DNA of 64,000 nt, from positions 64,355,824 through 64,419,823 of the forward strand of contig CM057232.1 in the NCBI GenBank assembly GCA_029891385.1. The letters are read 5' to 3'. Positions 9,864 to 37,499 of the stretch are shown here, one piece after another. A program made the translations under genes and the position numbers. Under the pieces are notes generated by a model. The model was not told the origin of the DNA. It saw nothing but the letters and a program-made list of their open reading frames with translations, and did not search any database. Every line of letters begins with the position of its first letter. Within the stretch, counting starts at the first letter, position 1. The DNA comes from Erythroxylum novogranatense (Eukaryota > Streptophyta > Magnoliopsida > Malpighiales > Erythroxylaceae).

Positions 9864-10179
9864 TGTTGGACCCCGATCTTTAAATAGAATTTAGAAATAT
9901 TAAATGAACTTGAATGAGTGTTTTAATGTATGTTTTGTGTATTAGATGAATTTATATTTAAAGGAAATTGATGAGAAAAAGAATTGATTCGTTTTGATGG
10001 TTTTGACATTTGAGTCATTTTGCTTAGGTTATGAAAGTTTAAGAGAATGGGTGAATGAAATGGAAGTAGAAAAGTAAAGAAAGAAAGTAAGAGAATGTGA
10101 AAAATTAAGAAATTTGACTTTTGGAGATAGAAAGTTTGACTTGAGAGTTGACTTTTTGTTTGAGGCAAAATTTGAGAAA

Positions 10180-10810
10180 ATTATTTTCTGGAAACTTGTA
10201 TTTTTGTTAAGACTTTCTGTATCCATAAAGTTTGATATTTTTCGATATCGGAAGTGAGAATTATGATCAGTCAAAGTTCGCTTGGAGTTTGACTTTTTGA
10301 AGAAAAAGTTGACTTTTTGATTTAGGCAAAATTCGAGAAAATGATCAACATAAAAATTTTAGCCTATGTCGAGAGCTTTTTGTGGACATAAAGTTTGCTA
10401 TTTTTCGATGTCGGGATTGAGAGATATGAATTTCTGAAGATATGCTTTGTTTTGAAAATGCTATTAAGTATAGATTTGTGTGTTCTATGCTTCGAGGCCA
10501 CTTGTCGGATGGATTTAGTTTGAATTAGAGTAAGTGGTCTTCATGAAAGTTTTAGATGATGTTTTTATCTTTCCATTGATATAAAGTTAGCAAATTTTCG
10601 ATATCGGGGCTAGGAGTTATGAGCGATTAAAAATTGGAAGTCGTTTAGGAAAAGTTGTTTTGGACAGAATCTTTGATTGAGTTTTTGACCTCTTTTGAGA
10701 CCTAATTTGATTTTGTGTACTTCATGGAAGTTGTAGAGATTCCTTTGATATTTTTATTGACACCAAATTTGTCAAATTCTGAGTTCGAGATCGAGAGATA
10801 TGATTTTGGA
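10180..10810 (+). repeat. ~180-bp degenerate module repeated inside the G1 5' LTR
   Basis: The phrase 'CATAAAGTTTGnTATTTTTCGAT', a 'TCGG' and a 'GAG-TTATGA' ending recur near 10225, 10388, 10579 and 10762, spaced 163-191 bp. Each is preceded by a 'CATGAAAGTTTTAGA'-like phrase in the later units. The same array occurs in the 3' LTR near 15880-16500. Confidence 0.65.
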
Positions 10811-12399
10811 AAAGTTCGGTTTTGAAGTTCCGATACTTTGCTTTTAATCCGATCCCTTTTGTAATCTTTTGCTTATAATTCCTTCGTCCGACATCCGATT
10901 GATTTGATTCTCGAATTGTTGGATTCCTAAGACAATTAATTTCTTTTTCTGGAAGAATTATGATTTTAGGAGATTAAATGGAAAGAGATTGATTGAACCA
11001 AAGTAAGAGATTTGGTTATAGGTTATAAGTTGGATAATTTTCTAAACATAGTCCAGTATTTTACGATTTTCGGGAGCTGTACAACTCCGATTGAGTCGAT
11101 TCTTGAGGCCAAATAAACTTAAGATATGGGACTTCAATTATGTGAAGGGTTCGAATTTTAATTTAGTCCCTAAGGTCGTTAATTTTTGAATCAAAGTAGG
11201 GTTAATATTTAATCTCGGATTTTGTGCAGGTCCGATAGTATTTCGACCATAACTTCTTCGTTTTAGCTCCGAATTGAGCGCTGGCAGTGGTGTTGGATTC
11301 GTATGATCGAGGGGAACAATTTTATAGTAGAAATTTTATCCAAATTATGTCATTTATCTACCCAAAATTTGGAAGTAAGATATCAGATTTTTAAATACAG
11401 TGCAAGGGCAAGATGGTCTTTTCTTCCTCACTTAAGTGACATGGCAAAACACAGCCCATGGCTGTCGTATAGGGCATCTGATTCACAATAATTAGGAGCA
11501 AAAATAAGAAGGAAAATAGAAGAAAAGAGAAAAGAATCCGAAATGAAAAGAAGAGAGGAGAGAAGGAGTAGCCGTGAGAGGAGAAGAAGAAAAGAAGATG
11601 AAAGGAAGCCCGGTGCTTCGATTTTTATAGGGTTTTGGGGAATTTCACCATGATTCAAGAAGAATGGAAGGAAGAAGATGAAAGCTTCATCTCGAGCAAG
11701 AAAATTCAAATTTGAGAAGATGAAGGTAAGAGATGAACCTTGATCTTTGAGTTGTTCTTGAATCCTTGGTTTAGATCTATGGAAAATGTTATGGGTTTGT
11801 TAATTCCATGATAAATTTTGGGAGATTTCATGTCAGATTGATTTAATTTTGGTTATGAATGGGTTAGGGTTTTTCGTCTTGAATTTGGGGATTTTGGAAT
11901 TTTGGAAGTGTATTGATTTAGAAAGTTTGGAATTATGATGAGTATGGGGTTTCTATAGTTCATTTTAGTCCTTCTGTTTTTCTGTGATTTTGAAATTAGT
12001 GATTTTGGTTTAGGAACCTTTCGCTTGGATGAAGGAAAGAAGTAATGGAGGAATTGAAACTTTGGAAAAGTTTCTAGCAAGAAAATGAGGTGGGTATACG
12101 TTTGGAATTATAAACTTTATGTGTGTTCTTTGGAATTCAAGAAAGTGAAAGGGATTTTTTTAAAGTCATTGCTTTGAATATTTTGATGAAATTGAACAAT
12201 TGATTGTTCAATGTAGAAGAGAAATGTTTGAAAATGGATAGTTTATATTTTTAGAATACAAATTTTCTGATTTCCGAAGGAAAGTATCGACTTTTTATTT
12301 ATTTTCAAATGGGTTTGGAAATTGGTACAAGTCATGAATGATTGATAAGTTAGGAAATGTTGTATTCTTAGATCTTGAAAATTGAGAAATTCTTTGGGT

Positions 12400-12900
12400 T
12401 TGAATTTACTCCTTTTGAAAGAAATTATGGTTTCCGAATTTGTTTGAAAGTGTTTATACAATATTGGTTATGGAAAAGTTTGAAAAAAAATGAGGACTTT
12501 TCAAATATTGTTAGAATGTCTTTTATAGAAAATGTTTGAACAACTTAGGATTTCTGAATTCTTTCGGCATTGGTTACAAAATAGTGTTTATAAAAGTATT
12601 TGAAAAGTTTACGATTTCTCGAACTTGTTTTAAAAAAAAAATGTTTGACAAAGTTCTGTTTGAAATTGTTGGAAAATAAAGGTTACTTAAATGTTGAAAA
12701 GAACGATTTCCGAAAAGCGTTTGGAATTGTGTAGAAATGTTGAGAGTTTTTGATTCCAAAAAAATGTTTTTGAAATTGTTTAGAAAATATGATTTAAGTA
12801 TATAAGTGTTTGACAATTATGATTTTCGAAAGCTTTTGAAAGTGTTATAAAAATACCATTTGAAATTATGATAAACATATCGTTTATAAAAGTGCTTGAT
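12400..12900 (+). repeat. Degenerate ~60-bp repeats ('GTTTGAAA..GATTTCCGAA') in the G1 LTR
   Basis: Variants of 'ATGATTTCCGAA', 'GTTTGAAAnTGTTT' and 'ATAAAAGT' alternate at roughly 60-70 bp. The corresponding 3' LTR zone is 18500-19020. No product is visible. Confidence 0.5.
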
Positions 12901-14406
12901 AATTATGATTTCGATATATTGGGATTGATTGATAAAATACATTGCGATTTCGATTGTTTTTTGAATTAAAATCTTGATTTTGAATGAACAATGATTTTTA
13001 CGGTTATTAGTCATCATGTTTTGAATTTTATAAGGAATGGCTACCATGAGTGAAATCAATGTTATGAATGATTTGATGAGATTTGATGCGATTTTCGAGT
13101 TAAAATTGTTTTAATGATTTGATAAAGTATCAAAGGTGTGGCATACTTTATTACTGAATTGTGTGAATTGATTAAGGTTTTGATTGTCATGAGCTGGTGA
13201 TGGATTGTGATTATATTTTGTTTGTCCGATGACAAATATATGGAGAATTGTAATATGCATGTATGTGATACGTGAGTTATGTGAAGTTTGAAAATCAAGC
13301 TTTTGAAATGTGCCTTCGGGCAATTTGATTTTTGATGTATGATATGTGTTATGTGGGTTTGGGTTAGGTCCCTTAAGTTGAGTCGATTACTTGGTCTCGT
13401 GTTAAAAGCCTTCTCCTACGCTCATGAGTGGCTTAGAGCTCAATTTCGACTCCTCTGTTTACTACTATACAGAACCGCTATGCGGGAACGTGTAGTTCGT
13501 TATGTTAGGACCTACTCAAACCATTAAATGTGTTATCTGTTTTGTGTTGGATGCCATGTATAACCCAAGAACACACGCCGCAGTATAACCTGCAAACACC
13601 TACGGGTGGGGTGTGGGGTCCAACATCAAACCATTATGTTATGTTATATGTTTTTTTTGAATTTTGTTTATGTACGTGACACTTCTTTTATGTGATGCAT
13701 TCATATTTAAAATTGTGCATGATTTGTGAAAGGTTTGAGAATTTGAGAAATGAGAGTGATTTGTCAATCATGAAATTTCGGAAACTGTTTATGAATGTTT
13801 CGAAATAAATGAAGATGTTGAAAATAATCTTAGAAAATGTTGATGAAGGTTTATGAATGTTTTGGAAAGTTTGAAAATGAGTTTTTGAATTAAATTTCCG
13901 AATGGGAAAGGTTTGAAAAGTTTGAAAAGACAATTTTCGCTTATGTTTCATTTATAAATATGTTACCCATTGAGCTGTCAAGCTCACCCCCCTTTCATCC
14001 CCATCTCTAGGTTTCGAGCAGGAGATCGGATGAATGCGGTCAAGACGTCAGTTCGACATTATATGTTTTTGTAATTTGTATATGGCTTGGAATGCCACTT
14101 ATGCGTATGAAGTATTTAGTTCTTGATGTATTCGAATTTATGTATGATTATGGATATGGGATTATGTAAGTAGATCATGGTAGTTTATATGAATATGAGT
14201 GGTTTGAATCGAATTATGAATTGGTATTTTGATTTTGAGATATGTGTAAATAAGGTTATTTATGATGATGGAATTGGATTGAGAATTATTGAAGTGTTAG
14301 GTAGATGTGTGTTCTGCTGACGTTAGGATGTCGGACGGGAGATCCGATGACTCTGTATGATTGGTTGAGATTATAGAAGTGTGTTTTTGATTTGCAGAAA
14401 TTTTTG

Positions 14407-14453
14407 GGCTGTCAAAATACAGCCGTTATGCTGCTCGATTTTCGAGAAAATCG
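14407..14453 (+). other. Paired hairpins near the G1 5' LTR end
   Basis: GGCTGT-CAAAAT-ACAGCC (14407-14424) is followed by CGATTTTC-GA-GAAAATCG (14436-14453). The second hairpin ends 403 nt before the LTR edge. The 3' LTR copy (20521-20569) has the same pair, with the second stem extended to 10 bp (CCCGATTTTC/GAAAATCGGG). Confidence 0.7.
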
Positions 14454-14860
14454 GGTTATGGCAAAGTTATAATAAGAATGAGGGTTTTAAGATGGGATTA
14501 AGATCTGCACGATTAAAAGTGAATTGAGCTTATGGAAAAAGGTTAGTGAGTTTGGAATGGTTAAATTTCCAAATGGGAAATTGTATTGTTTTGAGTTGTA
14601 GGAGATTGATTAAAGAGAAAAGGAATGATTAATAAGAATGAAAAAAATAGACCGGATTTGGAATGTCTTAGTGTTTCCAACGCGATCGATTTCTTATGCT
14701 CGTGTTTGAAACGGATGTCGATGTTGGTTTCAGTTTGACTATTTCGCTTGTCTCCGCTTTGTTATTCGTATTCCAATTCGCGACTTTCCGCACTTTGTTT
14801 CACTTTTCCGTTTCCGTTTTCCAGTTGGGATCCGATTCCCGGATCGGGTCTCAACATTTA

Positions 14861-14874
14861 TGGTATCAGAGTCC
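14861..14874 (+). other. Primer binding site of G1 (tRNA-iMet type)
   Basis: TGGTATCAGAGTCC, four bases after the LTR edge, differs from the usual TGGTATCAGAGCC by the inserted or changed T near its end. It is on the plus strand and so fixes the element's orientation. Confidence 0.85.
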
Positions 14875-15512
14875 AGTATTAGGATCGTAACTGGGCGCAG
14901 GAGATTGATAAGAGATTAAGATCGAATTACATTAATGATAGTGTGATTTGATGTGAGTGACCTATCATGACTTTAGAAATGTATTAAGGAAAATGAGATT
15001 GAAATTTTTAATGATTGGGTTGAATTGTGTATGATTATATATTTGGGAGATGAACGAATGAAAAGTTGAAAGACGAGTTTGATGATGGTATTAATTTGAC
15101 TGATGATTGATCCATTCTAGGGTTCATTAAGACCTGAACCTTTGATCCGTGTAAGTGGATTGAGAAATATTGATTTGTGGTGATTGTGCGTTAATATGAT
15201 CGTAAGAGTTCCTTGTGAAGAAGTGAAAAATATGTATGATGAAGAAAAATTAGATAAGAAGAGTGATTATTTGATTAAGGTTAAGGATTATGATTGATTT
15301 TAGGTTTGAGATTAAGACATTGTGATTAAAATTTCATGATGAATTTTGATGACCATTGATTTGTGAAAATGTGTTAAGAAATATTCTATTTGAGACAATA
15401 GTGTTCTGATATAAATGAGAAGTGAAAAATAGTGATTAAGTTAAGAATAAGAAATTGATAAGAAAGTGATTTGACTATTATGAGGAGAATGTGTTACTTG
15501 ATGACTACGTTT

Positions 15513-15532
15513 GAATTTCGAGGACGAAATTC
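15513..15532 (+). other. Pre-PPT hairpin of G1
   Basis: GAATTTCG-AGGA-CGAAATTC is a perfect 8-bp inverted repeat with a 4-nt AGGA loop, ending just before the polypurine tract. The same element occurs in G2 and G3 with paired base changes (see findings). Confidence 0.8.
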
Positions 15533-15534
15533 TT

Positions 15535-15550
15535 TTAAGAGGGGGATAAA
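15535..15550 (+). other. Polypurine tract of G1
   Basis: TTAAGAGGGGGATAAA lies directly against the 3' LTR start at 15551, the expected position for plus-strand priming in gypsy elements. Confidence 0.8.
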
Positions 15551-18500
15551 TGTTGGACCCCGATCTTTAAATGAAATTTAGAAATATTAAATGAACTTGA
15601 ATGAGTGTTTTAATGTATGTTTTGTGTATTAGATGAATTTATATTTAAAGGAAATTGATGAGAAAAAGAATTGATTCGTTTTGATGGTTTTGACATTTGA
15701 GTCATTTTGCTTAGGTTATGAAAGTTTAAGAGAATGGGTGAATGAAATGGAAGTAGAAAAGTAAAGAAAGAAAGTAAGAGAATGTGAAAAATTAAGAAAG
15801 TTGAATTTTGGAGATAGAAAGTTTGACTTGAGAGTTGACTTTTTGTTTGAGGCAAAATTTGAGAAAATTGTTTTCTGGAAACTTGTAGTTTATGTTAAGA
15901 GCTTTCTGTAGCCATAAAGTTTGATATTTTTCGATGTCGGAAGTGAGAATTATGATTAGTCAAAGTTCGCTTAGAGTTTGACTTTTTGAAGAAAAAGTTG
16001 ACTTTTTTGATTTAGGCAAAATTTGAGAAAATGATCAACATAAAAATTTTAGCCTCTGTCGAGAGCTTTTTGTGGACATAAAGTTTGCTATTTTTCGATG
16101 TCGGGATTGAGAGATATGAATTTCTGAAGATATGCTTTGTTTTGAAAATGCTATTAAGTATATATTTGTGTGTTCTATGCTTCAAGGCCACTCATCCTAC
16201 GGATTTAGTTTGAATTAGAGTAAGTGGTCTTCATGAAAGTTTTAGATGATGTTTTTATCTTTCCATTGATATAAAGTTTGCAATTTTTTTATATCGGGGC
16301 TAGGAGTTATGAGCGATTAAAAATTGGAAGTCGTATAGGAAAAACTGTTTTGGACAGAATCTTTGATTGAGATTTTGACCTCTTTTGAGACCTAATTTGA
16401 TTTTGTGTACTTCATGGAAGTTGTAGAGCTTCCTTTGATCTTTTTATTGACACCAAATTTGTCAAATTCCGAGTTCGGGATCGAGAGATATGATTTTGGA
16501 AAAGTTCTATTTTGAAGTTCCGATACTTTGTTTTTAATCCGATCCCTTTTGTAATCATTTGCTTATAATTCCTTCGTCCGACATCCGATTGATTTGATTC
16601 TCAAAGCGTTGGATTCCTAAGACAATTAATTTCTTTTTCCTGAAGAATTATGATTTTAGAAGATTAAATGGAAAGAGATTGATTGAACCAAAGTAAGAGA
16701 TTTGGTTATAGGTTATAAGTTGGATAATTTTCTGAACATAGTCCAGTATTTTGCGATTTTCGGGAGCTGTACAACTCCGATTGAGTCGATTCTTGAGTCC
16801 AAATAAACTTAAGATATGGGAATTCAATTATGTGAAGGGTTAGAATTTTAATTTAGTCCCTAAGGTCGTTAATGTTTGAATCAAAGTAGGGTTAATATTT
16901 AATCTCGGATTTTGTGCAGGTCCGATAGTATTTCGGCCATAACTTCTTCGTTTTAGCTCCGAGATGAGCGCCAGCAGTGGCGTTGGATTCGTATGATCGA
17001 GGGAAACAATTCTCTAGTAGAAAGTTTATCCAAATTATGTCATTTAGCTACCCAAAAGTTGGAAGTAAGATATCAGATTTTTAAATACAGTGCAAGGGCA
17101 AGCTGGTCTTTTCTTCCTCACTTAAGTGACATGGCAAAACACAGCCCATGGCTGTCGTATAGGGCATCTAATTCACAATAATTAGGAGCAAAAATAAGAA
17201 GGAAAATAGAAGAAAAAGAGAATAAAGAATCCAAAAATGAAAAGAAGAGAGGGAGAGAAGGAGTAGCCGTGAGAGGAGAAGAAGAAGAAGAAGATGAAAG
17301 GAAGCTTGGTGCTTCGATTTTTATGGGGTTTTTGGGGGAATTTCGACCATGATTCAAGAAGAATGGAAGGAAGAAGATGAAAGCTTCATCTTAGAGCAAG
17401 AAAATTCGAAATTTGAGAAGATGAAGGTAAGAGATGAACCTTGATCTTTGAGTTGTTCTTGAATCCTTGGTTTAGATCTATGGAAAATGTTATGGGTTTG
17501 TTAATTCCATGATAAATTTTGGGAGATTTCATGTTAGATTGATTTAATTTTGGTTATGAATGGGTTAGGGTTTTTCGTCTTGAATTTGGGGATTTTGGAA
17601 TTTTGGAAGTGTATTGATTTAGAAAGTTTGGAATTATGATGAGTATGGGGTTTCTATAGTTCATTTTAGTCCTTATGTTTTTCTGTGATTTTGAAATTAG
17701 TGATTTTGGTTTAGGAACCTTTAGCTTGGATGAAGGAAAGAAGTAATGGAGGAATTGAAACTTTGGAAAAGTTTCTAGCAAGAAAATGAGGTGGGTATAC
17801 TTTTGGAATTATAAACTTTATGTGTGTTCTTTGGAATTCAAGAAAGTGAAAGGGATTTTTTTAAAGTCATTGCTTTGAATATTTTGATGAAATTGAACAA
17901 TTGATTGTTCAATGTAGAAGAGAAATGTTTGAAAATGGATAGTTTATATTTTTAGAATACGAATTTTCTGATTTCCGAATGCTTTTGAAATTGAATAGCA
18001 AATATTGTTTATGTTTGAATGTATTTATTTTTGAATCATAAGTTTTGTAGGAGTTTTAAAAAAAATCAAGAATGAGAAATGTTTTGAAAATTTTTGTTTA
18101 TGCTTTGGGAAAAGCAAGAAGAGGATAAAAGATTTGTAAATTGATGTTTTAGAAATAATTTGATAAATGATTCCAAAGAATTGACTTAATTATGAAAATT
18201 GTTGCATTTATTAAGTTTGGAAGTTTAATTAAGAAATTTTATTACTATCTAACTAAATTAACAAAGTTGTTTAAAGTAAATGTTTTGTTTAATTGGAGAT
18301 ATTGCTAAAAGTGTTTCGGTTAAGTGAATGAAAATGTATCGATTTTTGCATTATTTGATTTTTAAGTGATTTGATAAAAATTTAAGAAGGAAAGTATCGA
18401 CTTTTTATTTATTTTCAAATGGGTTTAGAAATTGGTACAAGTCTTGAATGATTGATAAGTTAGGAAATGTTGTATTCTTTAATCTTGAAAATTGAGAAAT

Positions 18501-20974
18501 TCTTTGGGTTTGAATTTACTCCTTTTGAAAGAAATTATGGTTTCCGAATTTGTTTGAAAGTGTTTATACAATATTGGTTATGGAAAAGTTTGAAAAAAAA
18601 ATGAGGACTTTTAAAATATTGTTAGAATGTCTTTTTATAGAAAATGTTTGAACAACTTAGGATTTTCGAATTCTTTCGGCATTGGTTACAAAATAGTGTT
18701 TATAAAAGTGTTTGAAAAGTTTACGATTTCCTAACTTGTTTAAAAAAATGTTTGACAAAGTTCATTTGAAATTGTTAGAAAATAAAGGTTACTTAAATGT
18801 TGAAAAGAACGATTTCAAAAGCGTTTGGAATTGTGTAGAAATGTTGAGAGTTTTTTATTCCAAAAAAATGCTTTTGAAATTGTTTAGAAAATATGGTTTA
18901 AGTATATAAGTGTTTGACAATTATGATTTTCAAAGCTTTTGAAAGTGTTATAAAATACCGTTTGAAATTATGATAAACATATCGTTTATAAAAGTGCTTG
19001 ATAATTATGATTTCCGATATATTGGGATTGATTGATAAAATACATTGCGATTTCTGATTGTTTTTTTTGAATTAAAAATCTTGATTTCTGAATGAACAAT
19101 GATTTTTACGAAGTTATTAGTCATCATGTTTTGAATTTTATAAGGAATGGCTACCATGAGTGAAATCAATGTTATGAATGATTTGATGAGATTTGATGCG
19201 ATTTTCGAGTTAAAATTGTTTTAATGATTTGATAAAGTATCAAAGGTGTGGCATACTTTGTTACGAATTGTGTGAATTGATTGAGGTTTTGATTGTCATG
19301 AGCTGGTGATGGATTGTGATTATATTTTGTTTGTCAGATGACAAATATATGGAGAATTGTAATATGCATGTATGTGATACGTGAGTTATGTGAAGTTTGA
19401 AAATCAAGCTTTTGAAATGTGCCTTCGGGCAATTTGATTTTTGATGTATGATATGTGTTATGTGGGTTTGGGTTAGGTCCCTTAAGTTGAGTCAGTGCAC
19501 TGGTCTCGTGTTAAAAGCCTTCTCTCAGCTGCCTGCAAGTGGCTTAGGAGCTCCGAATTTTGGACTCCTCTCCGTTTACGACTGCACAGAACCGCTATGC
19601 GGAAACGTGCAGTTCGTTATGTTAGCACCTACTCAAACCATTAAATGTGTTATCTGTTTTGTGTTGGATGCCGCGGTATAACCCGCAAACACACGCCGCA
19701 GTATAACCTGCAAACACCTACGGGTGGGGTGTGGGGTCCAACATCAAACCATTATGTTATGTTATATGTTTTTTTTGAATTTTGTTTATGTACGTGACAC
19801 TTCTTTTATGTGATGCATTCATATTTAAAATTGTGCATGATTTGTGAAAAGTTTGAGAATTTGAGAAATGAGAGTGATTTGTCAATCATGAAATTTCGGA
19901 AACTGTTTATGAATGTTTTGAAATAAATGAAGATGTTGAAAATAATCTTAGAAAATGTTGATGAAGGTTTATGAATGTTTTGGAAAGTTTGAAAATGAGT
20001 TTTTGAATTAAATTTCCGAATGGGAAAGGTTTGAAAAGTTTGAAAAGACAATTTTCGCTTATGTTTCATTTATAAATATATTACCCATTGAGTTTGTCAA
20101 GCTCACCCCTTTCATCCCTATCTCCGTGTTTGACGGAGATCGGATGAATGCGGTCAAGACGTCAGTTCGACATTATATGTTTTTGTAATTTGTATATGGC
20201 TTGGAATGCCACTTATGCGTATGAAGTATTTAGTTCTTGATGTATTCGAATTTATGTATGATTATGGATATGGGATTATGTAAGTAGATCATGGTAGTTT
20301 ATATGAATATGAGTGGTTTGAATCGAATTATGAATTGGTATTTTGATTTTGAGATATGTGTAAATAAGGTTATTTATGATGATGGAATTGGATTGAGAAT
20401 TATTGAAGTGTTAGGTAGATGTGTGTTCTGCTGACGTTAGGATGCCGGACGGGAGGTCCGATGACTCTGTATGATTGGTTGAGATTATAGAAGTGTGTTT
20501 TTGATTTGCAGAAATTTTTGGGCTGTCAAAATACAGCCGTTATGCTGCCCGATTTTCGAGAAAATCGGGTTATGGAAAAGTTATAATAAGAATGAGGGTT
20601 TTAAGATGGGATTAAGATCTGCACGATTAAAAGTGAATTGAGCTTATGGAAAAAGGTTAGTGAGTTTGGAATGGTTAAATTTCCAAATGGGAAATTGTAT
20701 TGTTTTGAGTTGTAGGAGATTGATTAAAGAGAAAAGGAATGATTAATAAGAATGAAAGAAAAAATAGACCGGATTTGGAATGTATTAGTGTTTCCAACGC
20801 GATCAGTTTGCTATGCTTCGTGTTTGAAATGGATGTCGATGTTGGTTTTAGTTTGACTATTTCGCTTGTCTCCGCTTTGTTATTCGTATTCCAATTCGCG
20901 ACTTTCCGCACTTTGTTTCACTTTTCCGTTTCCGTTTTCCAGTTGGGATCCGGTTCTCGGATCGGGTCTCAACA
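15551..20974 (+). repeat. G1 3' LTR
   Basis: 5424 bp with the same ends as the 5' LTR. It keeps the 409-bp block missing from the 5' LTR. At 19670-19719 it has two 25-bp units beginning GCCGCGGTATAACC and GCCGCAGTATAACC; in the 5' LTR the first unit is degraded. Followed by TTTTT (20975-20979), the right target duplication. Confidence 0.9.
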
Positions 20975-21596
20975 TTTTTTTTCTTGAACCAGAAGAAGAA
21001 GAGTCCACCACTAGCACTGGCTTGCTATCCTTCTTGATAGCTTGCTCTACTATCTTGAGCAGATTGATCAACTCAGGGATTGTCGTGGATATTTGGTTCA
21101 TCTGATAGTTTAACACAAACTATGAATAACTATCAGACAATCCAACTAAAATTAAGGAAGCATTTAATTCTTAATCCATAACAAAACCCAAGATGGCCAA
21201 CCTCTCAATATACCCATTCGTCTTCAGTGCATACTGCAACTACAAATGTCCCCGGAGTCATCTTAGTCGTGAAGAGAAGCCTCGAGGTTTTAAACCTTTC
21301 AGACCGAGCTTACTCATCAAAAAGTTCTCTAAGATGAACACTATGGTATTAGCATCCATAGACTCATGCTGCTTCTCCAGCTCTGGTAACATAAAGGCTA
21401 GCATAATACAAGTAACCATGTCACTAACCTTGAGATGTTTACGATATGTTTTCTAAACCTCATCAGAAGCATCAACAGTAGGTGGATCAAGAAGTGGAAC
21501 GTCTAGGACATAGCCTAACTCCTCAGATCTGAGAACAATTTTGATATTTCTCAGCCAATCAAGAAAGTTAGGTCCAGTTAATTTATTAGACTCCAT
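20975..21596 (-). pseudogene. Copia B gag, N-terminal part
   Basis: The start codon at 21594-21596 opens 'MESNKLTGPNFLDWLRNIKI', a typical plant copia gag N-terminus (UBN2-like). Similarity continues to 20975 through stretches such as 'KTYRKHLKVSDMV' and 'ELINLLKIVEQAIKKDSKP', with stops (one near 21454 at 'EV*KTYRKHL') and frame breaks. The lysine-rich end at 20975 joins the lysine-rich start at 9863 in the same strand and order, so G1 landed between the gag helical domain and the zinc knuckle. Confidence 0.85.
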
Positions 21597-22511: not shown

Positions 22512-23999
22512 CAATTACTATTTTCTTAATGTTCAGTAATTCTCTTACATAATTGGATTCATCTCATCATCATAATGAAAGCATGTTCTACCTTTTTCGC
22601 TCGAGTCTCTGCTAGAATTAAGACTCCAAATTTAACTTGTAATTCATTTCAAATTTATCTCTATACTGTCCTTGCATTGATCACTATTCAATTGAATCAT
22701 TCGATCAACTTAATCCAATTCTTCTTTGGAAGTAAATTTCTTACTATTTTCATCAATACTACTTATGAAATTCCTCAACATCACAGTCATCACATTTCTT
22801 GTCAATCAATTCCAATGCCTTAAGAACACAATATCCCATGTAGATCAATCTATGCCACAATCCATATAATCAGGCAATCCTTTTTAATACTATTCATTGA
22901 GGTCCGTACCAGCAAAAATCATTGCATCGATATACCAATTAGTCACTTACACGAAGGATATACAATACTCTCTTTTTGCACCTAACCTCACTCGTGAGGA
23001 TTAAATTATGATCAAGTCTTCAACATATAACAAATTTCAATTCATTCCCAATATAATCATCACATCTTATTTGAAAATGTATTCTCATCAATTACTACTA
23101 AGAACTCTTTATTCACATTTACTCGAGATAACCTTTCTCTTTTTGGTATCACCATTAACAGTCTCTCTTCTTTCCCAAAGGATTTATCATAAACATTTTC
23201 CTTTCTCATTTGAACTCATATCATATTGAACTTTATACAATACAATCATCCCTTAAGTTACTTCTCCTGCCATCTCCACATACACTAGACAATTTCGGTT
23301 AATATTTATCACTTACCATGGGGCTCCCATAATCAGGTGTGTATTTACTTAGGCAAATCAATTAAACCGGAACATCTGTTTCACTTATCAGTATCATTGT
23401 CTTACCTTTCCATCTTTTCATGATGACATCACACCCTTATATTTTCACACTCAACGATCAACGTCATAGATATACCATCATTCTTGATTTCTCTCTAACG
23501 TAATCGATTTACAGTCATAAATCATTATTCATAACACTCGTCACAGTAATCAATCTCAATTATAACATTTCATTTCATCCACATTATACACTTGTACTCT
23601 TGTCATTTCTATCATAGCTCTAATTTTCTTTATCAGTTCAGAACATATTCACATCTATCTCACATTCAAGGATATACCCCCGGTATAATGCGGATATCGC
23701 ATTCCATAAGGTATCTACTAATACTAATACACTCAATCTTCATTTTTCAAATCGAATCATATACCTTTTTTCGATTTTATGATATCCACAACTGGCATTT
23801 ATCCCATTCTGATATATCATCAATTTCCTCACAAATTCTAATGACTGAAACAATTGGTACAGGCTCCTACATGTGACTCATATATTAGACTGGGGATCAG
23901 TTGTCACTGTCTGCCGTGACATGACTTAAATGCATGTAGCTAGAGACAAATTTCAGAATGCCCATATACAATCGTACTTCTGGGCTCTGATACCACAAA
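22512..23999 (-). repeat. Truncated second G2 core
   Basis: Near-identical to 28895-30373. Homology starts abruptly at 'CAATTACTATTTT' (22512 and 28895). It has scattered substitutions and a cluster of short indels between about 23845 and 24000. No coding similarity. Confidence 0.9.
23982..23995 (-). other. Primer binding site next to the central G2 LTR
   Basis: On the minus strand TGGTATCAGAGCCC, four bases from the LTR edge at 24000. The matching site of the other unit (near 30346-30368) is degraded ('GGCTCTCGATACCTAA' on the plus strand). Confidence 0.85.
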
Positions 24000-24349
24000 T
24001 GTGACACCCCACTACCGCCAGACCCGAACCCGACATCCACAATGATATCCGAGTCCGTGCCCCGCGAGGGTGGCGTGCTAACCACTCATTCAGAAATTGA
24101 TACATTATTCTTCTTCAAACATATGTGCGGAATTTCATGCCCAAATTGGGTACTCGTTCAATCACATTCAATTTCAATACACACATTTTTCAAAAGCCAC
24201 TGAGGTCAATTTCACAAATACACATAAACACTTTATTACAAAAATAAAGACATGTCATGCAGACACGAACTGATCCTGACTTCTGACCTTCACTTGAATC
24301 CTGCAAACATACTCCCGTTTTACTAACGGGGTACTCTTCGATTCCTGAA

Positions 24350-24735
24350 AAATAGTTGCAATGTTGGGTGAGTTTGCGAACTCAGTGAGAAACCATCATC
24401 GATGGTTCACTCAACGCATGCATAATCGAACAATTCACATCTTATCACATAATATCACAATCCAAATCAACTCAGACATTGCCAATTTGTACACATATAA
24501 GGCATATCGCGTTTCACACTATTCATATACCTATCGACACAAAAATAGTTGCAATGTTGGGTGAGTTTGCGAACTCAGTGAGAAACCATCATCGATGGTT
24601 CACTCAACGCATGCATAATCGAACAATTCACATCTTATCACATAATATCACAATCCAAATCAACTCAGGCATTGCCAATTTGTACACATATAAGGCATAT
24701 CGCCTTTCACACTATTCATATACATATCGACACTG
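24350..24735 (-). repeat. 193-bp tandem duplication in the G2 LTR
   Basis: 24350-24542 is repeated at 24543-24735 with few differences. Each unit carries the two-hairpin block (24366-24412 and 24559-24605). The other LTR has the same duplication with the same period (30719-31104), so it predates the copying of the LTRs. Confidence 0.9.
24366..24412 (-). other. Two-hairpin block in the G2 LTR
   Basis: On the plus strand GAGTT-TGCG-AACTC is followed by AACCATC-ATC-GATGGTT. Further copies lie at 24559-24605, 30733-30782 and 30926-30975, and related blocks lie in the G3 LTR (41031-41078) and the G4 LTR (53789-53835). Confidence 0.75.
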
Positions 24736-27027
24736 CACACAAATCTCTTCCGAAAATTTCCATTGTTTTACTCTGAGTTGTTTTACTTTGAGTTGTGACT
24801 GAGCGCTTAACGGATCAGAATTCGGATACACTTAGGGAGTAGGAGAGCCCTCTGGGTATACACTGACTCTCCTCGAGCTCAAAGCTCGGTTCATTCAAAG
24901 TAATCACATTTTAAGCAAGTAGGAGAGCCCCCTGGGTATGCACTACTGCTCGCTCACATTAGGGATAGGAGAGCCCTCTGGGTATGCACTATTCTCTTTT
25001 CACAATAGATGAGCTTATAGCTCCGATCAGAACATGCTCCAGTCACAACCATTATTTATTAACCAATTATAGATTTCACACGTTCAGTCATATTTCTATA
25101 CACATTACACACATATCAAATCACATTCCCAATCATTTCACAACAGCATTCACAATTTGCACTTTTACTATCACATTCAAATACTTCGGACACCCGTGGT
25201 CCGAAATCAATCAAGTCAAACACATCTATCCGTCCTTTTGTCTCCACATGGCATAGAAGCATAATATTAAACACATAAGGTTGAGAAACCAACTAGGTTA
25301 CTCACCTGAACTTCCTAGTCATTGCTCGAAGCTCCAAAGATCGTCAGTGGATTATCGATCCATCAGCTCTATAACAATTCAATTAATTTCATTCATTACA
25401 AAATACACAGTCAAAATAATTAATGATGCACATGCCTTGAATAAAAGATGTACTATGCCTATTCATGATTTTCCCGGTACCATTCCCCCACTTTCCACTT
25501 TCACTTTCTTTTACTCAGTATCTAACTTTCACTCACTTGATTAATATCGGCTCATTTCGATTCAATAACACGCCGTAGAACTCACCAAATTCGTTTATAC
25601 CAATCAGTTCCATTTGCCAATTCATATGCACTAAACTAAGCTTACAAGATCTCAAAACCACTTTTCATTTTGAACTAAATCAAATTCACTTATTACAGAC
25701 TCCAATTAAACTGAATTCATATTCGAAATTCTCATAATTATAACCCAATTACTCAAAACAATTCTTAGGATGCAATACAATCATATTTCTCAGCTTTATT
25801 TCACAAATCAGGATTCTCATAATTAAATTTCAAACCTTCATTCTTCTCCTCATTTATAGACCTCTTTCTCTAGATCACAACGAATCAAACATCACCTCAA
25901 TCTATGGTCTACATCAAAAGTTATGCCCCTAAAACCAAACTATACTCATTTAGTAGAAACACCTCCTCAAGCGACGTGAGGGCGTTAAATCATGGCGACA
26001 AAGGCGCCACACATGGCGCGGACGATTGGAGGCTCGCCGCGGCAAGAACACAATTTTCTCGCCGCGTCGCAGCGCAGGCACGCCGCGACGTGCGGCCCTC
26101 CCGTCGTCTTCTCCGACGAGCTCTCCCTCTTTTCTCTCTCTACAAACTCCAGTACTAACTCATAAACACTCAAATCTTTAACAATTAACCCTTATGCATG
26201 CTTTAAACACAATAATCATAACATTAAATCATATACTTACCAAGTCACGCAATCTAACCATTCGGATTTCCTCCTATTTCTTTCCCTTCTCTCAACACCA
26301 ACGATGAACCCTCCAAACTCATCAAATAATCTTCTTCTCTCAAAGGTTTCCGTCGATCTTTAACCACAAGGAAGAGAAACAAGCAAGAATCAAGAAGAAG
26401 AAAGGAACGAAGACCACCGAAGGAGAAGAAGAGGGTTCGTGCCCTAGGAGGAGAAACAATTCCCTTTTTCCTTTCTTTTTCAGACGTAGAACAAATATAT
26501 ATACGGAACAAATAAGCCTCTTGTCATTTCCTCCCAAAACATTTAACTCTCAAATCAGTCCACTCATCTCCAAATCTCAATGGCTCAACATATTAAATTC
26601 CGAGATCATATATCTAAATTTTCTATTGCCATAAGACAATTATTTTGGTCCTATTTAGTCAATCGGTCTGCCACTCGGAGAATTTCCAGTCCGGACATGA
26701 TTTTCAGAAACAATTTCTAAGGTTCACAATCAATCGGCAATCACTCTGATACAGTTCCCAATCCACCATTTACACCCAGTTATTCCATAATTCCCAATAT
26801 ATCATAATCCAATCTAATTATCTCACAAATTCACAAACTCAAATCATTTACAAAATCAAATGCCGAAAAAAGTCATGAATGCATGTACCTATATGTGCAT
26901 GTGCCAAAAGACGTAGTCCTCTACAATCAGAGGCCAAACAATTGTTCACATCAGAGATATGAAATGCAAAGTACTAGCCTGACCAAATTTACCCATATAC
27001 CCTTCCCATTAGGGTCGGGATGTTACA

Positions 27028-27045
27028 ATTCTCCCCTCCTTACAA
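27028..27045 (-). other. Polypurine tract of G2
   Basis: The minus strand reads TTTGTAAGGAGGGGAGAAT directly before the LTR start TGTAACATCC, the position of the plus-strand primer. Confidence 0.8.
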
Positions 27046-27065
27046 AAATTTTGTCCTCAAAATTT
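27046..27065 (-). other. Pre-PPT hairpin of G2
   Basis: In element orientation AAATTTTG-AGGA-CAAAATTT is a perfect 8-bp stem with an AGGA loop. Compared with G3 one C-G pair has become T-A, and pairing is kept. Confidence 0.8.
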
Positions 27066-30000
27066 CATATACGATTGATCAGGGAGGCAGGGGAATCGTT
27101 CCGATCACTAGATACTGTTTTCCACTTATTTCTCTATATAGACAATTTCTGCCAAATAACTGAAATCAATACTATCAATCACTCTTTATCTTTTCTCTAA
27201 CTTTACACAGTCTCATAGATTCCTCAAGATCACTCACAATTCTTTACTTTCGATATCGATAATACATATGTCAGATCATAACGATAGTTCTTAATCCTGT
27301 CCAAGTAACACTTTGGATCCGAAACATCTTTTACAGATTTATAAATCCGTAGTTCCATTCACACTACAGTCCCATAGAGATCACTACATATCGAATTTAA
27401 TTACCCTTCATTATACCTGTGTCTCTATCTAAGTGTATCTGGCCGAGGCGATACACTTCAAAACAATTCATTTATCGTTTATTAGATTACATTCCTTTAG
27501 TGATAAAACCTTAATCTCATAAGATTATAATCACCTCGATAACAATCAACTCGACACATTGTCATACCTTTTTGATTTCTAAATCCCCATTCTGATTCAT
27601 TTACTCTCAACATATCTGTTGCTCAAATGGTGTCACCAATGCAACAATTGATATAGTTGCAATCAATTCAGACTATACGCCAATTTATGTCCCTATGAAT
27701 TCCCAAATTATTCATTTGACAATTGATTCCAACAGACAAGCCTGTTGGTTGATCATACGAACAACCATTCGATTTTTCACGCTAAACTATCGATTCCTCT
27801 TTCGATTTGCTCTTACTAAACCATAATACTCTCTAACAGTTTCTCGATAACATTCGCAAATGTCAACACCTTAATTTGGTCTTTGCCAATCTTTTTAAAT
27901 ATACACACCAGTTTTTGAATTCCAATAACAAATAATACTTTCTTTTTGCCCCTTTTTGCTAGCTCGACGATTTATACTCAGTCATACAATCAAAACCTTA
28001 TCACTCAGATAATTTCCTGTTCAATCCATTTAATTTCATGACTAGCATAATTGAATTATTCAATCACTTAATTCTTTTCAAATCTTTCGAATTCACAAAA
28101 CACTATTGATTTGCACATCCGTAGACATTTTCAATTGTTTCAGTCCAATTATTGTCTCCAAGCTTTTAGAGCAACACTCATTACAACATACGCAAATTAT
28201 CAATCAAAATACAGCCCATGAAGTTTTACTTGCCCCAAGGTACAAGAATCACTTTACATCCTTTCATCAGATTGCAGTATAACCTTTACTGGGACATTTC
28301 AGTATATAATGCAAAATCTCCAAATCCCGTATACATATATAAGTCCCTTACAATTTCGCATTGTATCCATACCCCTATTGTCATTAGGTCTCCCAATGTG
28401 CCTTTTCGAGTAATAAATCATCCACTATTTATTCAATCAAGGTCAAATTCACTCTTATGAAACTCGCATAGTATACAATTTCCTCATCTGTGCCGATTTA
28501 TCTTTTTCACTTTTCAAATGCATTTAATCGATCATCGATGATCTTAATCATTTCCAATCTGAATGCACTCAAGACACTTTACTTTTTAGTAGCACAATAC
28601 TATTAGGGCATTGTTATCTCGGACAATTTCAATCCAAAATTCCTTATACCCGTGATCACTTTGCATAACTCTTTAAATATCAAAGTCTCCAATGAGGAAC
28701 GATTTTCTTATAATTTCTCAATTCCATCCTAGCATATTCTGACATATGTTCCTTTTACCCAAATTTCTCCACATAACCCAATTTATGTGCAATAGATCAC
28801 TGCCTGCATTAATTAAACATTCATCAAATCAATTTCGTATTTTCAGCACATAATTACACAAACCATACACGAATCTATTTTCTCCTCATATTCGCAATTA
28901 CTATTTTCTTAATGTTCAGTAATTCTCTTACATAATTGGATTCATCTCATCATCATAATGAAAGCATGTTCTACCTTTTTCACTCGAGTCTCTGCTAGAA
29001 TTAAGACTCCAAATTTAACTTGTAATTCATTTCAAATTTATCTCTATACTGTCCTTGCATTGATCACTATTCAATTGAATCATTCGATCAACTTAATCCA
29101 ATTCTTCTTTGGAAGTAAATTTCTTACTATGTTCATCAATACTACTTATGAAATTCCTCAACATCACAGTCATCACATTTCTTGTCAATCAATTCCAATG
29201 CCTTAAGAACACAATATCCCATGTAGATCAATCTATGCCACAATCCATATAATCAGACTATCCTTTTTAATACTATTCATTGAGGTCCGTACCAGCAAAA
29301 ATCATTGCATCGATATACCAATTAGTCACTTACACGAAGGATATACAATACTCTCTTTTTGCACCTAACCTCACTCGTGAGGATTAAATTATGATCAAGT
29401 CTTCAACATATAACAAATTTCAATTCATTCCCAATATAATCATCACATCTTATTTGAAAATGTATTCTCATCAATTACTACTAAGAACTCTTTATTCACA
29501 TTTACTCGAGATAACCTTTCTCTTTTTGGTATCACCATTAACAGTCTCTCTTCTTTCCCAAAGGATTTATCATAAACATTTTCCTTTCTCATTTGAACTC
29601 ATATCATATTGAACTTTATACAATACAATCATCCCTTAAGTTACTTCTCCTGCCATCTCCACATACACTAGACAATTTCGGTTAATATTTATCACTTACC
29701 ATGGGGCTCCCATAATCAGGTGTGTATTTACTTAGGCAAATCAATTAAACCGGAACATCTGTTTCACTTATCAGTATCATTGTCTTACCTTTCCATCTTT
29801 TCATGATTACATCACACCCTTATATTTTCACATTCAACGATCAACGTCATAGATATACCATCATTCTTGATTTCTCTCTAACGTAATCGATTTACAGTCA
29901 TAAATCATTATTCATAACACTCGTCACAGTAATCAATCTCAATTATAACATTTCATTTCATCCACATTATACACTTGTACTCTTGTCATTTCTATCATAG

Positions 30001-30373
30001 CTCTAATTCTCTTTATCAGTTCAGAACATATTCACATCTATCTCACATTCAAGGATATACCCCCGGTATAATGTGGATATCGCATTCCATAAGGTATCTA
30101 CTAATACTAATACACTCAATCTTCATTTTTCAAATCGAATCATATACCTTTTTTCGATTTCATGATATCCACAACTGACATTTATCCCATTATGATATAT
30201 CATCAATTTCCTCACAAATTCTAATGATGAAACAATTGGTACAGGCTCTACATGTGACTCATATATTAGATCGGGATCGGTTGTCACCGCTGCGTGACAT
30301 GACTTAAATGCATGTAGCTGACACAATTTCAGAATGCCCATGTACAATCGTATTTCGGCTCTCGATACCTAAA

Positions 30374-33956: not shown

Positions 33957-34202
33957 GGCTCTGATACCACTGTAGAAAAATCCTGGTGCATGTATCACAT
34001 ACACGCGGTGCAGAAAACAAAAAATTTTATTTTAGGACTTTCCCAAATTCCAAGATCCATGTGTCTATACGAAGAAGTACCAAAATTCTCAAACCATAAT
34101 GACCAAAGGAAACTGTCTCTAACGGTATCGACGCAAAGGTCAGAGAATCTAACCACATCAAACTATTTAATTCAGAAATAGCTAGAATAAAGAAGAGAGT
34201 AC
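33955..34202 (-). repeat. Copia primer site and partial LTR
   Basis: 'GGCTCTGATACCAC' (33957-33969 region) is the complement of a tRNA-iMet primer site, followed by the LTR edge 'TGTAGAAAAATCCTGG' at about 33970. The LTR runs about 230 bp before the CACTA terminus cuts in at 34203. Orientation minus. Confidence 0.7.
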
Positions 34203-35160: not shown

Positions 35161-35427
35161 TGTAATTATTTTATATTTAAATGTTTATTCTTACAAATAA
35201 ACAAATCAATTAATGGGTTTCTGACTAATTAATTAGTTTAATTTTATTAGCATTTAGTTTAACACAAATCAATTAAAGGTAAAGTTTATTTATTTATTGA
35301 AGGTTGGATCTTGGTACATCTTATTTCACTGATGTAGTAGGCTGATGAATGAGATTGTCAGCTCTAGTAATTCTGCATTAGTGTGTGAGGAGAGAATAGA
35401 GCTTATGAGGATGTAATAATTCTGCAT

Positions 35428-35965
35428 TAGGTAACTTTCCCAAATCTCAACTTAGTTATTTATAGACAAAGGTCTCCAACTCAGTCCAAATTTCAGTCTC
35501 TAAATTTCAATGGCTCAACATTTAAATTTCCTGACAGTATAACCCTAATATTTCCTTAGCCATTGGACAATTCTTTCAAGATTATCTGATCGATCGATCA
35601 TCACTCCAAAATTTCTGGTCCGGGTATTTTCTCCCGAATTTCCAAAAAATTTCCTATAAACCACTATCAATTACCAATCACTCTTAAACTATTCTAAATC
35701 CGTCATTCGAGCTCACTTACTCTTAATTTGTCAGTCAATTACAATCCAGTCACTCCAGTCAGTTCACAATTCAATCAGTTCATACTTCCACTTAAAATGC
35801 CGAAAAATCATAAATGCATGTACCAATGAATAAATGCATATGCAAGAAACCTGTTCTTCTATAATTAGAGGCCAGTAACATGCTCAGTCAGTGAATGCAG
35901 TGAAACCTATCAGTGTAACCCAGAATTACTATAATACCCTTGCTAACAGTAACAAGGATGTTACA
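35428..35965 (-). repeat. Truncated 3' LTR of G3
   Basis: Matches 42917-43451 of the 5' LTR closely, ending GGATGTTACA. Homology stops at 'TTAGGTAAC' (35427). A 14-bp phrase TAATTCTGCATTAG occurs at the break (35417-35430) and 49 bp earlier (35368-35381). Confidence 0.9.
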
Positions 35966-35982
35966 ATTTACCCTCCTAATAA
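35966..35982 (-). other. Polypurine tract of G3
   Basis: The minus strand reads TTTATTAGGAGGGTAAAT directly before the LTR start TGTAACATCC. Confidence 0.8.
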
Positions 35983-36002
35983 AAATTTCGTCCTCGAAAT
36001 TT
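35983..36002 (-). other. Pre-PPT hairpin of G3
   Basis: In element orientation AAATTTCG-AGGA-CGAAATTT, a perfect 8-bp stem with an AGGA loop, adjacent to the PPT as in G1 and G2. Confidence 0.8.
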
Positions 36003-37499
36003 AATACTGTCGATCGAATAAATGAGGATCTTGACTCCTCATATGCTCCTCGCCTCTCCATGTAGCTTCCTCGGAAGAGTGGTTCTTCCAAAGGACTTTC
36101 ACCAATGGAATTACCTGTTCCTCAACCGCTTGACTGTGATCCAATAATCTGCGGCTCCTCAACATAGGTCAAATCACCGGCTACCTCAATCTCCCGAGCG
36201 GGATCACATCGTCGGTCCGAACGGTATCGTCGGAGCATACTGACATGAAACACGTCATGCATCTGGGACATCTCACTCGCTAATGCCAGTCTGTAAGCCA
36301 ATGGTCCTATCCTCTCAAGGATCTCGTACGGACTGATATACCAAGGGCTCAACTTGCCCTTACGGCCAAACCTCAGTACTCCTTTCCAAGGAGACACTCG
36401 GAGAAACACTCTGTCCCTAACACTGTACTCCATATCTCGCCGATGCTGATCCACATAGCTCTTCTGTCTATCCTGAGCCGCCTTGATGCGAATCCGGATC
36501 AACTGTACCTTATCCACTGTATCCTGAATCAGCTCGGGACCCTCTATCGATCTCATACCCTCTTCATCCCAATACAGTGGCGATCTGCACGGCCTCCCAT
36601 ACAAGGCCTCATACGGTGCCATCCCAATACTGCTCTGATACTGATTGTTGTAGGCAAACTCAATCAGAGCCAGATGCTGATCCCATGGTCCTCGGAACTC
36701 CAATACACATGCTCGAAGCATGTCCTCAACAGTCTTAATCGTCCTCTCACTCTGTCCTTCTGTCTGAGGATGAAATGCAGTACTGAAGTTCAACCTCGTA
36801 CCCATAGCAGTCTGTAGGCTCTTCCAGAACCTTGAGGTGAACCTGGGATCCCTATCCGAGACTATCGACAACGGAACCCCATGTAACCGTACAATCTCTG
36901 CCACATACTTCTGGGCCAACTGATCGAGAGTATTACTCTCCCTCACTGGCAAGAAGTGAGCCGATTTAGTCAATCGGTCCACTATGACCCAGATAGCATC
37001 ATGCTGCCCCGGTGTCCTAGGCAATCCCATCACAAAATCCATAGTGATTTGCTCCCATTTCCACTCCGGAATGGGCAACGAATGCAACTTACCTACTGGA
37101 GCCTGGTGCTCAGCCTTAACCTGCTGGCACGTCAGACACCTGGACACATACTCTGCCACTTGCCTCTTCATGCCAAGCCACGAAATCTTTGTCTCGAGAA
37201 CGATACATCTTGGTCGTACCAGGATGCATCGCATAGGCAGCTACATGAGCTTCCTCTAGGATCTCCCGTCTCAAGTCATCAATGTTCGGCACACACAGCC
37301 TCTGTCCCAACCATAAAGTCCCATCTCTCAACTCAAACTTTGAATCAGTACCAGTCTGGACTCTCTCAATCAGTCTCACTAACACTGCGTCTTGATCCTG
37401 AACTCTCCGGATCCTATCATGCAACATCGGCCTCAGCCTTAGAGCAGCAATCAGAGCTCCATCCTGACCCATATCCATCTGTACATTAAGAGCTCTCAA
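36003..37499 (-). pseudogene. G3 integrase with shifted chromodomain
   Basis: From 37499 downwards: an HHCC zinc-binding N-terminus ('HVAAYAMHPGTTKMY', then after a frameshift near 37200 'CLTCQQVKAEHQ'), a catalytic core in one clean frame 37234-36122 with Asp in 'WEQITMDFVMGLP', Asp in 'SIVSDRDPRFTS' and Glu in 'HPQTEGQSERTIKT', the 'YGRPCRSPLYW' block and the C-terminal 'HDVFHVSMLRRY' motif. The frame ends at 36122, and the C-terminal half of a chromodomain ('VKVLWKNHSSEEATWRGEE') follows in another frame (about 36120-36010). Chromodomains direct chromovirus integration to marked chromatin. The best preserved protein domain in the window. Confidence 0.92.

What the first reader, a model, noticed from the sequence alone, without database searches (positions are those of the whole stretch)
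15513..15550. Hairpin with AGGA loop just before the polypurine tract, kept by paired changes in G1, G2 and G3
Seen: G1 GAATTTCG-AGGA-CGAAATTC (15513-15532), G3 AAATTTCG-AGGA-CGAAATTT (35983-36002, minus), G2 AAATTTTG-AGGA-CAAAATTT (27046-27065, minus). All have an exact 8-bp stem and the same loop, ending within a few bases of the PPT. The outer pair is G-C in G1 and A-T in G2/G3; an inner pair is C-G in G1/G3 and T-A in G2. The non-autonomous elements, which have lost all genes, keep it, as expected of a cis-acting signal for plus-strand priming, packaging or 3' processing (inference). The 'TTCGAGGACGAA' phrase is common at Tekay 3' ends; I do not recall it being described as a hairpin. Caution: the inner pair change in G2 could be two separate CpG deaminations.
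Basis: partly seen in the sequence, partly recalled or inferred. Interest (0 to 1): 0.75.

Follow-up and report, generated by a model that had tools for sequence, protein, structure and literature searches.

The report
Covarying hairpin before retrotransposon primer
Next to the sequence that starts second-strand DNA synthesis, a group of plant jumping genes keeps a small hairpin whose two arms have changed in step, so it is probably a working part of how these elements copy themselves.

Summary
Within G1-G3 the paired-change case is thin: G2's inner T-A pair is CpG decay (12 of 20 relatives keep both CpGs), and copy-level changes are mostly one-sided. Between lineages it is strong: 14 family stems (10 Tekay-like, 4 picked distant ones) give 96.9% paired cells, two-sided changes at all 7 pairs (20 cells, 3 of them possibly paired CpG decay), no one-sided change, and 0 of 500 shuffles as high on four of five measures (4 on the fifth). 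Proteins read the motif in three frames, so selection is on nucleic acid. Loop end to LTR start is 24-26 nt in 13 of 13 lineages. Ten other lineages with a PPT candidate lack it; on an integrase tree its presence needs one change (support 86/66). Best reading: a cis-acting hairpin of plant chromoviruses and gene-less relatives that helps define the plus-strand primer; the function is inferred. The closest known case, the Sirevirus inverted repeat around the PPT, is laid out differently. No description was found in the open papers searched.

The parts
15513..15532 (+). G1 hairpin, 8-bp stem GAATTTCG/CGAAATTC, loop AGGA
   Evidence: in MFE fold
15533..15550 (+). G1 T-rich spacer and PPT (purine run 15537-15546) up to the 3' LTR start
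15551..20976 (+). G1 3' LTR (5' LTR 9864-14859, PBS TGGTATCAGA at 14861); element 11.1 kb, no ORF of 150 aa or more
27046..27065 (-). G2 hairpin, 8-bp stem AAATTTTG/CAAAATTT, loop AGGA; both CpGs changed relative to 12 of 20 family copies read
27028..27045 (-). G2 spacer and PPT (purine run 27041-27029) up to the LTR start at 27027
35983..36002 (-). G3 hairpin, 8-bp stem AAATTTCG/CGAAATTT, loop AGGA
35966..35982 (-). G3 spacer and PPT (purine run 35977-35971) up to the LTR start at 35965
36122..37240 (-). G3 integrase ORF with Tf2-1-like SH3 domain, used to find relatives

Best explanation
It is a cis-acting nucleic-acid hairpin, most likely acting in the plus-strand genomic RNA, belonging to a lineage of plant chromoviruses and to non-autonomous elements that probably use their machinery. 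Shown: a 6-9 bp stem with a 3-4 nt purine-rich loop, pairing kept by two-sided changes between lineages, position nearly fixed relative to the PPT/LTR junction, independence of reading frame. Inferred: it helps make the plus-strand primer. Minus-strand synthesis coming from the LTR meets the base of the stem 17-20 nt after the junction; a pause there, or a fold that peels the RNA just 5' of the PPT off the hybrid, would hold RNase H near the junction or set the 5' limit of the primer.
For: Covariation: 14 stems, 7 of 7 pairs changed on both sides, 20 cells, none one-sided, 0 of 500 shuffles as high on four measures and 4 of 500 on the fifth; sliding the partner lowers pairing from 96.9% to at most 50%; 10 Tekay-like stems, not chosen for a hairpin: 100% paired, 11 two-sided cells, none one-sided; 11 unique stems, 74 of 77 cells paired against a maximum of 70 in 20,000 arm shuffles. 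17 of the 20 two-sided cells are outside the CpG pairs or are transversions such as C-G to G-C. Frame independence. Distance: loop end to LTR start 24-26 nt in 13 lineages (sd 0.77) although spacer (sd 2.3) and purine run to LTR (sd 2.1) each vary. Gene-less families keep it. All 7 Tekay-like loci that reach an LTR (6 distinct) have it. Of 71 integrase rows of further own-genome families 20 were fetched; 20 of 20 have the core, 15 with all 8 pairs formed (G-U counted), 5 with one or two mismatches.
Against: No functional data. MFE folds form the hairpin in 9 of 12 sequences only and z-scores are weak, -1.98 to +1.01. In the Tekay-only set the number of pairs with two-sided changes (3) is reached by 75 of 500 shuffles and the number of pair types by 325. 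Shuffles do not remove relatedness. PMC3616985 (passages) argues that RNA secondary structure is unlikely to modulate priming, since the PPT works while hybridised. Ty3 RT has about 13 bp between its active sites (PMC5371799, passage), so 17-20 nt fits only if RT stops a few nt before the stem; the chromoviral distance is unknown. CpG decay showed no preference for changes that leave a G-U pair in plus-strand RNA (C to T 24, G to A 20 in 93 copies). Ten other lineages with a PPT candidate do without it.
Confidence: 0.5

Rival explanations
1. Packaging or Gag-binding signal: the G-rich purine loop (AGGA, GGGA, TGGA, GGA, AGGG, AGAG) on a short stem is read by the Gag zinc knuckle, like retroviral psi hairpins with G-rich tetraloops (recalled).
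For: The loops of the 14 family stems are G-rich while stems vary; non-autonomous families that must be packaged keep it.
Against: A packaging signal needs no fixed distance to the PPT/LTR junction, yet loop end to LTR start is 24-26 nt in 13 of 13 lineages.
Confidence: 0.22
2. Structured RNA element for another step (translation end, RNA stability, export) placed just after the pol reading frame.
For: It lies 45-69 nt after the TWE/SWE codons of the chromodomain region in 9 of 10 loci measured.
Against: Elements without an ORF of 150 aa keep it; its frame and position relative to the stop codon vary.
Confidence: 0.1
3. DNA-level inverted repeat bound by a dimeric protein, or an extruded hairpin in single-stranded minus-strand DNA.
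For: Covariation alone does not tell RNA from DNA; no plus-strand wobble bias was seen.
Against: Half-sites change (TTTCG, TTTGG, TTCGG, TTCCG, GAAACG, TTGCA) while complementarity stays, which does not suit a sequence-specific dimer. Minus-strand ssDNA is not excluded.
Confidence: 0.13
4. Sequence kept by coding or by descent, with no structural role.
For: Within the host genome the core TTTCG/CGAAA varies little, and copy-level changes are mostly one-sided CpG decay.
Against: The same DNA is read in three frames and occurs in gene-less elements; two-sided changes without one-sided ones between lineages.
Confidence: 0.05

Closest known systems
Inverted repeat flanking the PPT of Sireviruses and almost half of classic Ty1/copia elements (PMC2829016; passages)
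   Same: Conserved inverted repeat placed precisely at the PPT; the authors propose it helps correct primer formation.
   Different: There the left arm ends at the PPT and the right arm lies in the 3' LTR, so the PPT is in the loop. Here both arms are upstream of the PPT, the loop is 3-4 nt, the PPT is outside, and the elements are Ty3/gypsy.
U-box/T-box upstream of retroviral and Ty1 PPTs, and the TCTT of fission-yeast elements (PMC10085805; passages)
   Same: T-rich stretch directly 5' of the PPT; here a 4-5 nt spacer in G1-G3.
   Different: A linear motif; no hairpin 5' of it is described in the passages seen.
SHAPE-mapped PPT structures of HIV-1/SIV (PMC3616985) and Ty3 (PMC11381356) (passages)
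   Same: RNA structure at the PPT itself.
   Different: There the G-rich part of the PPT or the PPT itself is paired; no separate covarying hairpin upstream is described in the passages seen.
Retroviral psi hairpins with G-rich tetraloops bound by nucleocapsid (recalled)
   Same: Short stem, G-rich purine loop.
   Different: 5' leader location; no comparison was made here.

Membership tests
Sirevirus-type PPT inverted repeat | Left arm ends at the PPT, right arm inside the 3' LTR, PPT in the loop | tested here: not met
   Both arms end 17-20 nt before the LTR start in 13 lineages
Sirevirus-type PPT inverted repeat | Ty1/copia element | tested here: not met
   G3 encodes a Ty3/gypsy integrase with Tf2-1-like SH3 domain; G1 and G2 have no such ORF to test
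Tekay/Del chromovirus (G3) | Integrase closest to plant Tekay-like elements | tested here: inconclusive
Tekay/Del chromovirus (G3) | Chromodomain at the integrase C-terminus | tested here: inconclusive
   Not found in the 372-aa ORF, which ends early; some homologues carry PF00385
U-box/T-box next to PPT | T-rich stretch directly upstream of the PPT | tested here: met
   TTTT, TTGT, TTATT in G1, G2, G3; C-rich instead in some other lineages, for example L005, L007
Covarying structure | Two-sided changes exceed one-sided ones between lineages | tested here: met
   20 two-sided cells, 0 one-sided, 3 unpaired, of 98
Rfam family | Match at gathering score | tested here: not met
   0 matches in the whole window
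Nucleocapsid-binding packaging hairpin | Binding by nucleocapsid or effect on packaging | not testable with these tools
   needs biochemistry

The most novel reading that the evidence does not exclude
The hairpin is a built-in ruler: reverse transcriptase pauses at its base during minus-strand synthesis and so parks RNase H over the PPT/LTR junction, making the primer cut depend on an RNA structure about 25 nt away. It arose once in plant chromoviruses and is the tag by which gene-less families use their reverse transcriptase.
Probability: 0.22. Interest if true: 0.82.

Novelty: new variant of a known kind. Interest (0 to 1): 0.6.

Why it matters
How reverse transcriptase finds one purine tract as plus-strand primer is an old question. 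A covarying structure at a nearly fixed distance from the cut, shared by several chromovirus lineages and by two gene-less families (1664 and 2389 candidates in a loose first look of this genome, 40 scored each), makes it testable in vitro. It also offers a DNA mark for the 3' end of these elements, useful for annotating non-autonomous ones.

Tried and rejected
Viral contigs gave no usable plant copies: P0001 nothing; the 18-mer hit three contigs that look like chance hits; A1 gave one fragment whose downstream stretch showed no such hairpin. Protein search 2 on a 44-aa region found only its query. Plus-strand wobble bias: tested, not seen (24 C to T, 20 G to A in 93 copies; one control CpG site 12 TG, 4 CA). 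Thermodynamic z-scores: weak. G1-G3 inner pair as compensation: rejected. Coding explanation: rejected (three frames). A link of hairpin with chromodomain type was considered and is not clean: L050 has the hairpin and a classical-looking FLIKWKG stretch. An own-genome sample of CRM/Reina-type elements was not obtained. Rows dropped: the G2 window copy was left out of the shuffle and of the 14 stems; L010 and L011 are near-identical and counted once; L014 ends before the PPT; L186 has no PPT anchor; of 42 G006 matches 16 were read for a PPT, where absence was judged by eye; L057 (no purine run found) and L060 (no clear integrase end) were counted neither way; L055 has an 8-bp partly G-U fold and was counted as without hairpin; L119-L138 were fetched from the wrong end of the G2 family and not used.

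Full report
WHAT IS THERE. The three hairpins are in the sequence as reported. G1: 15513-15532 plus; G2: 27046-27065 minus; G3: 35983-36002 minus. Each is followed by a 4-5 nt spacer, a purine run and the LTR start. A scan with loose criteria listed 18 places and only these three have the AGGA loop. A perfect stem of 8 bp is not rare by itself in this window (38 listed). What is unusual is the same loop and nearly the same stem at three LTR boundaries with otherwise unlike flanks.

HOST. Contig lengths of the window's genome (98791962, 119280143, 96963822, 98355342) equal those given for Erythroxylum novogranatense proteins P0142, P0143, P0147 and P0172, so the host is very probably that species.

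WITHIN FAMILIES. Twenty G1-like and twenty G2-like copies were read out of 40 listed rows each, and all 110 integrase rows of the G3 search. G1 family: both stem CpGs intact in 17 of 20. G2 family: 12 of 20 (the rest 5 TG..CG, 1 CG..CA, 1 TG..TG, 1 CA..CA). G3 family: a PPT anchor in 109 of 110; 93 readable by a strict pattern, 51 with both CpGs intact, 18 TG..CG, 12 CG..CA, 5 CA..CG, 5 CG..TG, 1 TG..CA, 1 CA..CA. Of the 16 not read, most look by eye like the same hairpin with a substitution or small indel; L231 lacks the right arm. So copy-level change is mostly one-sided decay, and the T-A inner pair of G2 is best read as decay too.

BETWEEN LINEAGES. A scan of bacterial and archaeal assemblies with an integrase alignment (34 loci) brought up plant DNA left in them. 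The 7 loci with Tekay-like integrase (54-62% identity) that reach an LTR (L005-L011, 6 distinct) each have a hairpin before the PPT: L005 TATTTGG-AGGA-CCAAATA, L006 GAAATTTTG-AGGA-CAAAATTTC, L007 GATTCGG-TGGA-CCGAATC, L008 GATTTTG-GGGA-CAAAATC, L009 GATTCCG-GGA-CGGAATC, L010 GATTTCG-GGGA-CGAAATC. One cyanobacterial bin (G006, title uncultured Trichormus; the eukaryote is probably its host fern, inference) adds L012 ACGAAACG-AGGG-CGTTTCGT, L013 ATTGCA-AGAG-TGCAAT, L029 AATTCG-AGGA-CGAATT and L050 GTTTCG-AGGA-CGAAAC. On 14 family stems (four from the G1-G3 families, six from L005-L010, four from G006) and 7 pairs: 96.9% of 98 cells paired, every pair with two-sided changes, 20 such cells, none one-sided, 3 unpaired; 0 of 500 shuffles reached the values for pairing, pairs and cells with two-sided changes and covariation score, 4 of 500 that for pair types. 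Three of the 20 cells (L006 and L008 at pair 2, L013 at pair 1 from the loop) could be paired CpG decay; 17 are at other pairs or are C-G to G-C transversions. The four G006 stems were picked because they had hairpins. The 10 Tekay-like rows were not, and still give 100% pairing, 11 two-sided cells and none one-sided, though there the number of pairs with two-sided changes (3) is reached by 75 of 500 shuffles and that of pair types by 325. Arm shuffles agree (74 of 77 against at most 70 in 20,000). Relatedness is not removed by these controls. A search with another protein (71 rows) gave further families of the host: of 20 fetched, 20 have the core, 15 with all 8 pairs formed if G-U counts, 5 with one or two mismatches; there the core itself varies little.

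NOT PROTEIN. In predicted proteins the hairpin is read in three frames: NFEDEI and kin, ISRTK/ISGTK, FRGRN. A pattern count over 240 proteins gave 113, 6 and 9, with 112 not reading it or not placed; the frame-1 excess is partly by construction, since the second list was searched with frame-1 readers, and the pattern includes some false reads. Codon-level compensation is visible: NFEDEI, IFEDEN, SFEDET, NSEDGI and RFRDGI (P0120). Against it, of 116 reads six (NFVDEN, NFEDKN, NFVDKN) leave an outer mismatch, four (NFDDDI, IVGDEN, NFGDGI, NFEDQI) lack a perfect inner codon match, and four (LFEDQS, LFEDQF) are probably not the hairpin at all.

DISTANCE. From the end of the loop to the LTR start is 24-26 nt in 13 lineages, sd 0.77; spacer and purine run to LTR vary (sd 2.3 and 2.1) but offset each other. 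In the G3 family 63 of 91 measured copies have 26 nt, range 24-29. In 14 measured of the 20 copies it is 24-28. LTR starts in the contaminant loci are inferred from TG, without a second LTR.

WHO HAS IT. Among 16 G006 loci read, 4 have it, ten with a PPT candidate do not, two could not be judged. Five of the ten carry a classical-looking chromodomain (four of them with YLVLWKGY), which resembles the group I chromodomains of PMC3350952 (passages); but L050, which has the hairpin, also has a classical-looking FLIKWKG, so chromodomain type does not divide them cleanly. L029/L058 has no Pfam chromodomain before the PPT and its LTR appears to start TGATG, as described for CRM elements in PMC3059260 (passages), so it is probably CRM-like. 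On an integrase tree of 25 rows hairpin presence needs one change; the branch has support 86/66 and appears in 88% of 200 bootstrap trees, below the strong mark, and L050 is a long row whose place is unsure.

HOW IT MAY WORK. Plus-strand priming needs an exact RNase H cut at the PPT/LTR junction; in Ty3 the primer is thought to be re-used (PMC5371799, passages). A stem whose base lies 17-20 nt upstream of that cut could stall the polymerase with RNase H near the junction (about 13 bp behind in Ty3; 17-18 bp in HIV, recalled), or free the RNA 5' of the PPT. PMC3616985 argues against a role of RNA structure in priming (passages). Packaging through the G-rich loop is the main rival. Folds contain the hairpin in 9 of 12 sequences.

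LITERATURE. Eight searches of open PMC papers and passages of eleven papers showed no description of this hairpin. sought the letters themselves; its seven papers, judged from titles and abstract beginnings only, are not about retrotransposons. Subscription papers and supplements were not searched. PMC3601003 (passages) calls for a systematic search for PPT-containing hairpins in LTR elements.

NOT DONE. A sample of other chromovirus clades from the host genome was not obtained because the genome search was mostly unavailable.

Noticed in passing
9864-20976: G1 is an 11.1-kb element that is mostly LTR (5.0 and 5.4 kb) with about 0.7 kb between; its LTR start TGTTGGACCCCG and PPT resemble those of integrase-bearing families found with P0121 (L239-L258), its likely helpers.
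   Followed up: partly
22512-33316 (minus): The G2 repeat includes a PBS match at 23995 followed by 1.5 kb repeated at 28895-30463, so G2 looks like a tandem of LTR plus part of the internal region rather than a simple element with 4.5-kb LTRs.
   Followed up: partly
35423-35965 and 42912-43451: G3 LTR copies align over only about 0.55 kb (96.7%), with further PBS matches at 33969 and 40614 minus; the element boundaries are unresolved.
   Followed up: partly
L005-L014: Several assemblies titled as bacteria (Streptomyces clavifer, Mycobacterium sp., an Acidobacteriota bin, Labilibacter sediminis, Geminicoccus harenae, Solirubrobacter sp., a Trichormus bin, Robertmurraya) carry contigs of plant-like retrotransposons, evidently contamination.
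   Followed up: partly
15537-15567, 27041-27016, 35977-35955: The G run of the PPT could pair with the CC(CC) at the beginning of the LTR about 15 nt on; it is paired so in the G1 fold, not in the G2 and G3 folds.
   Followed up: no
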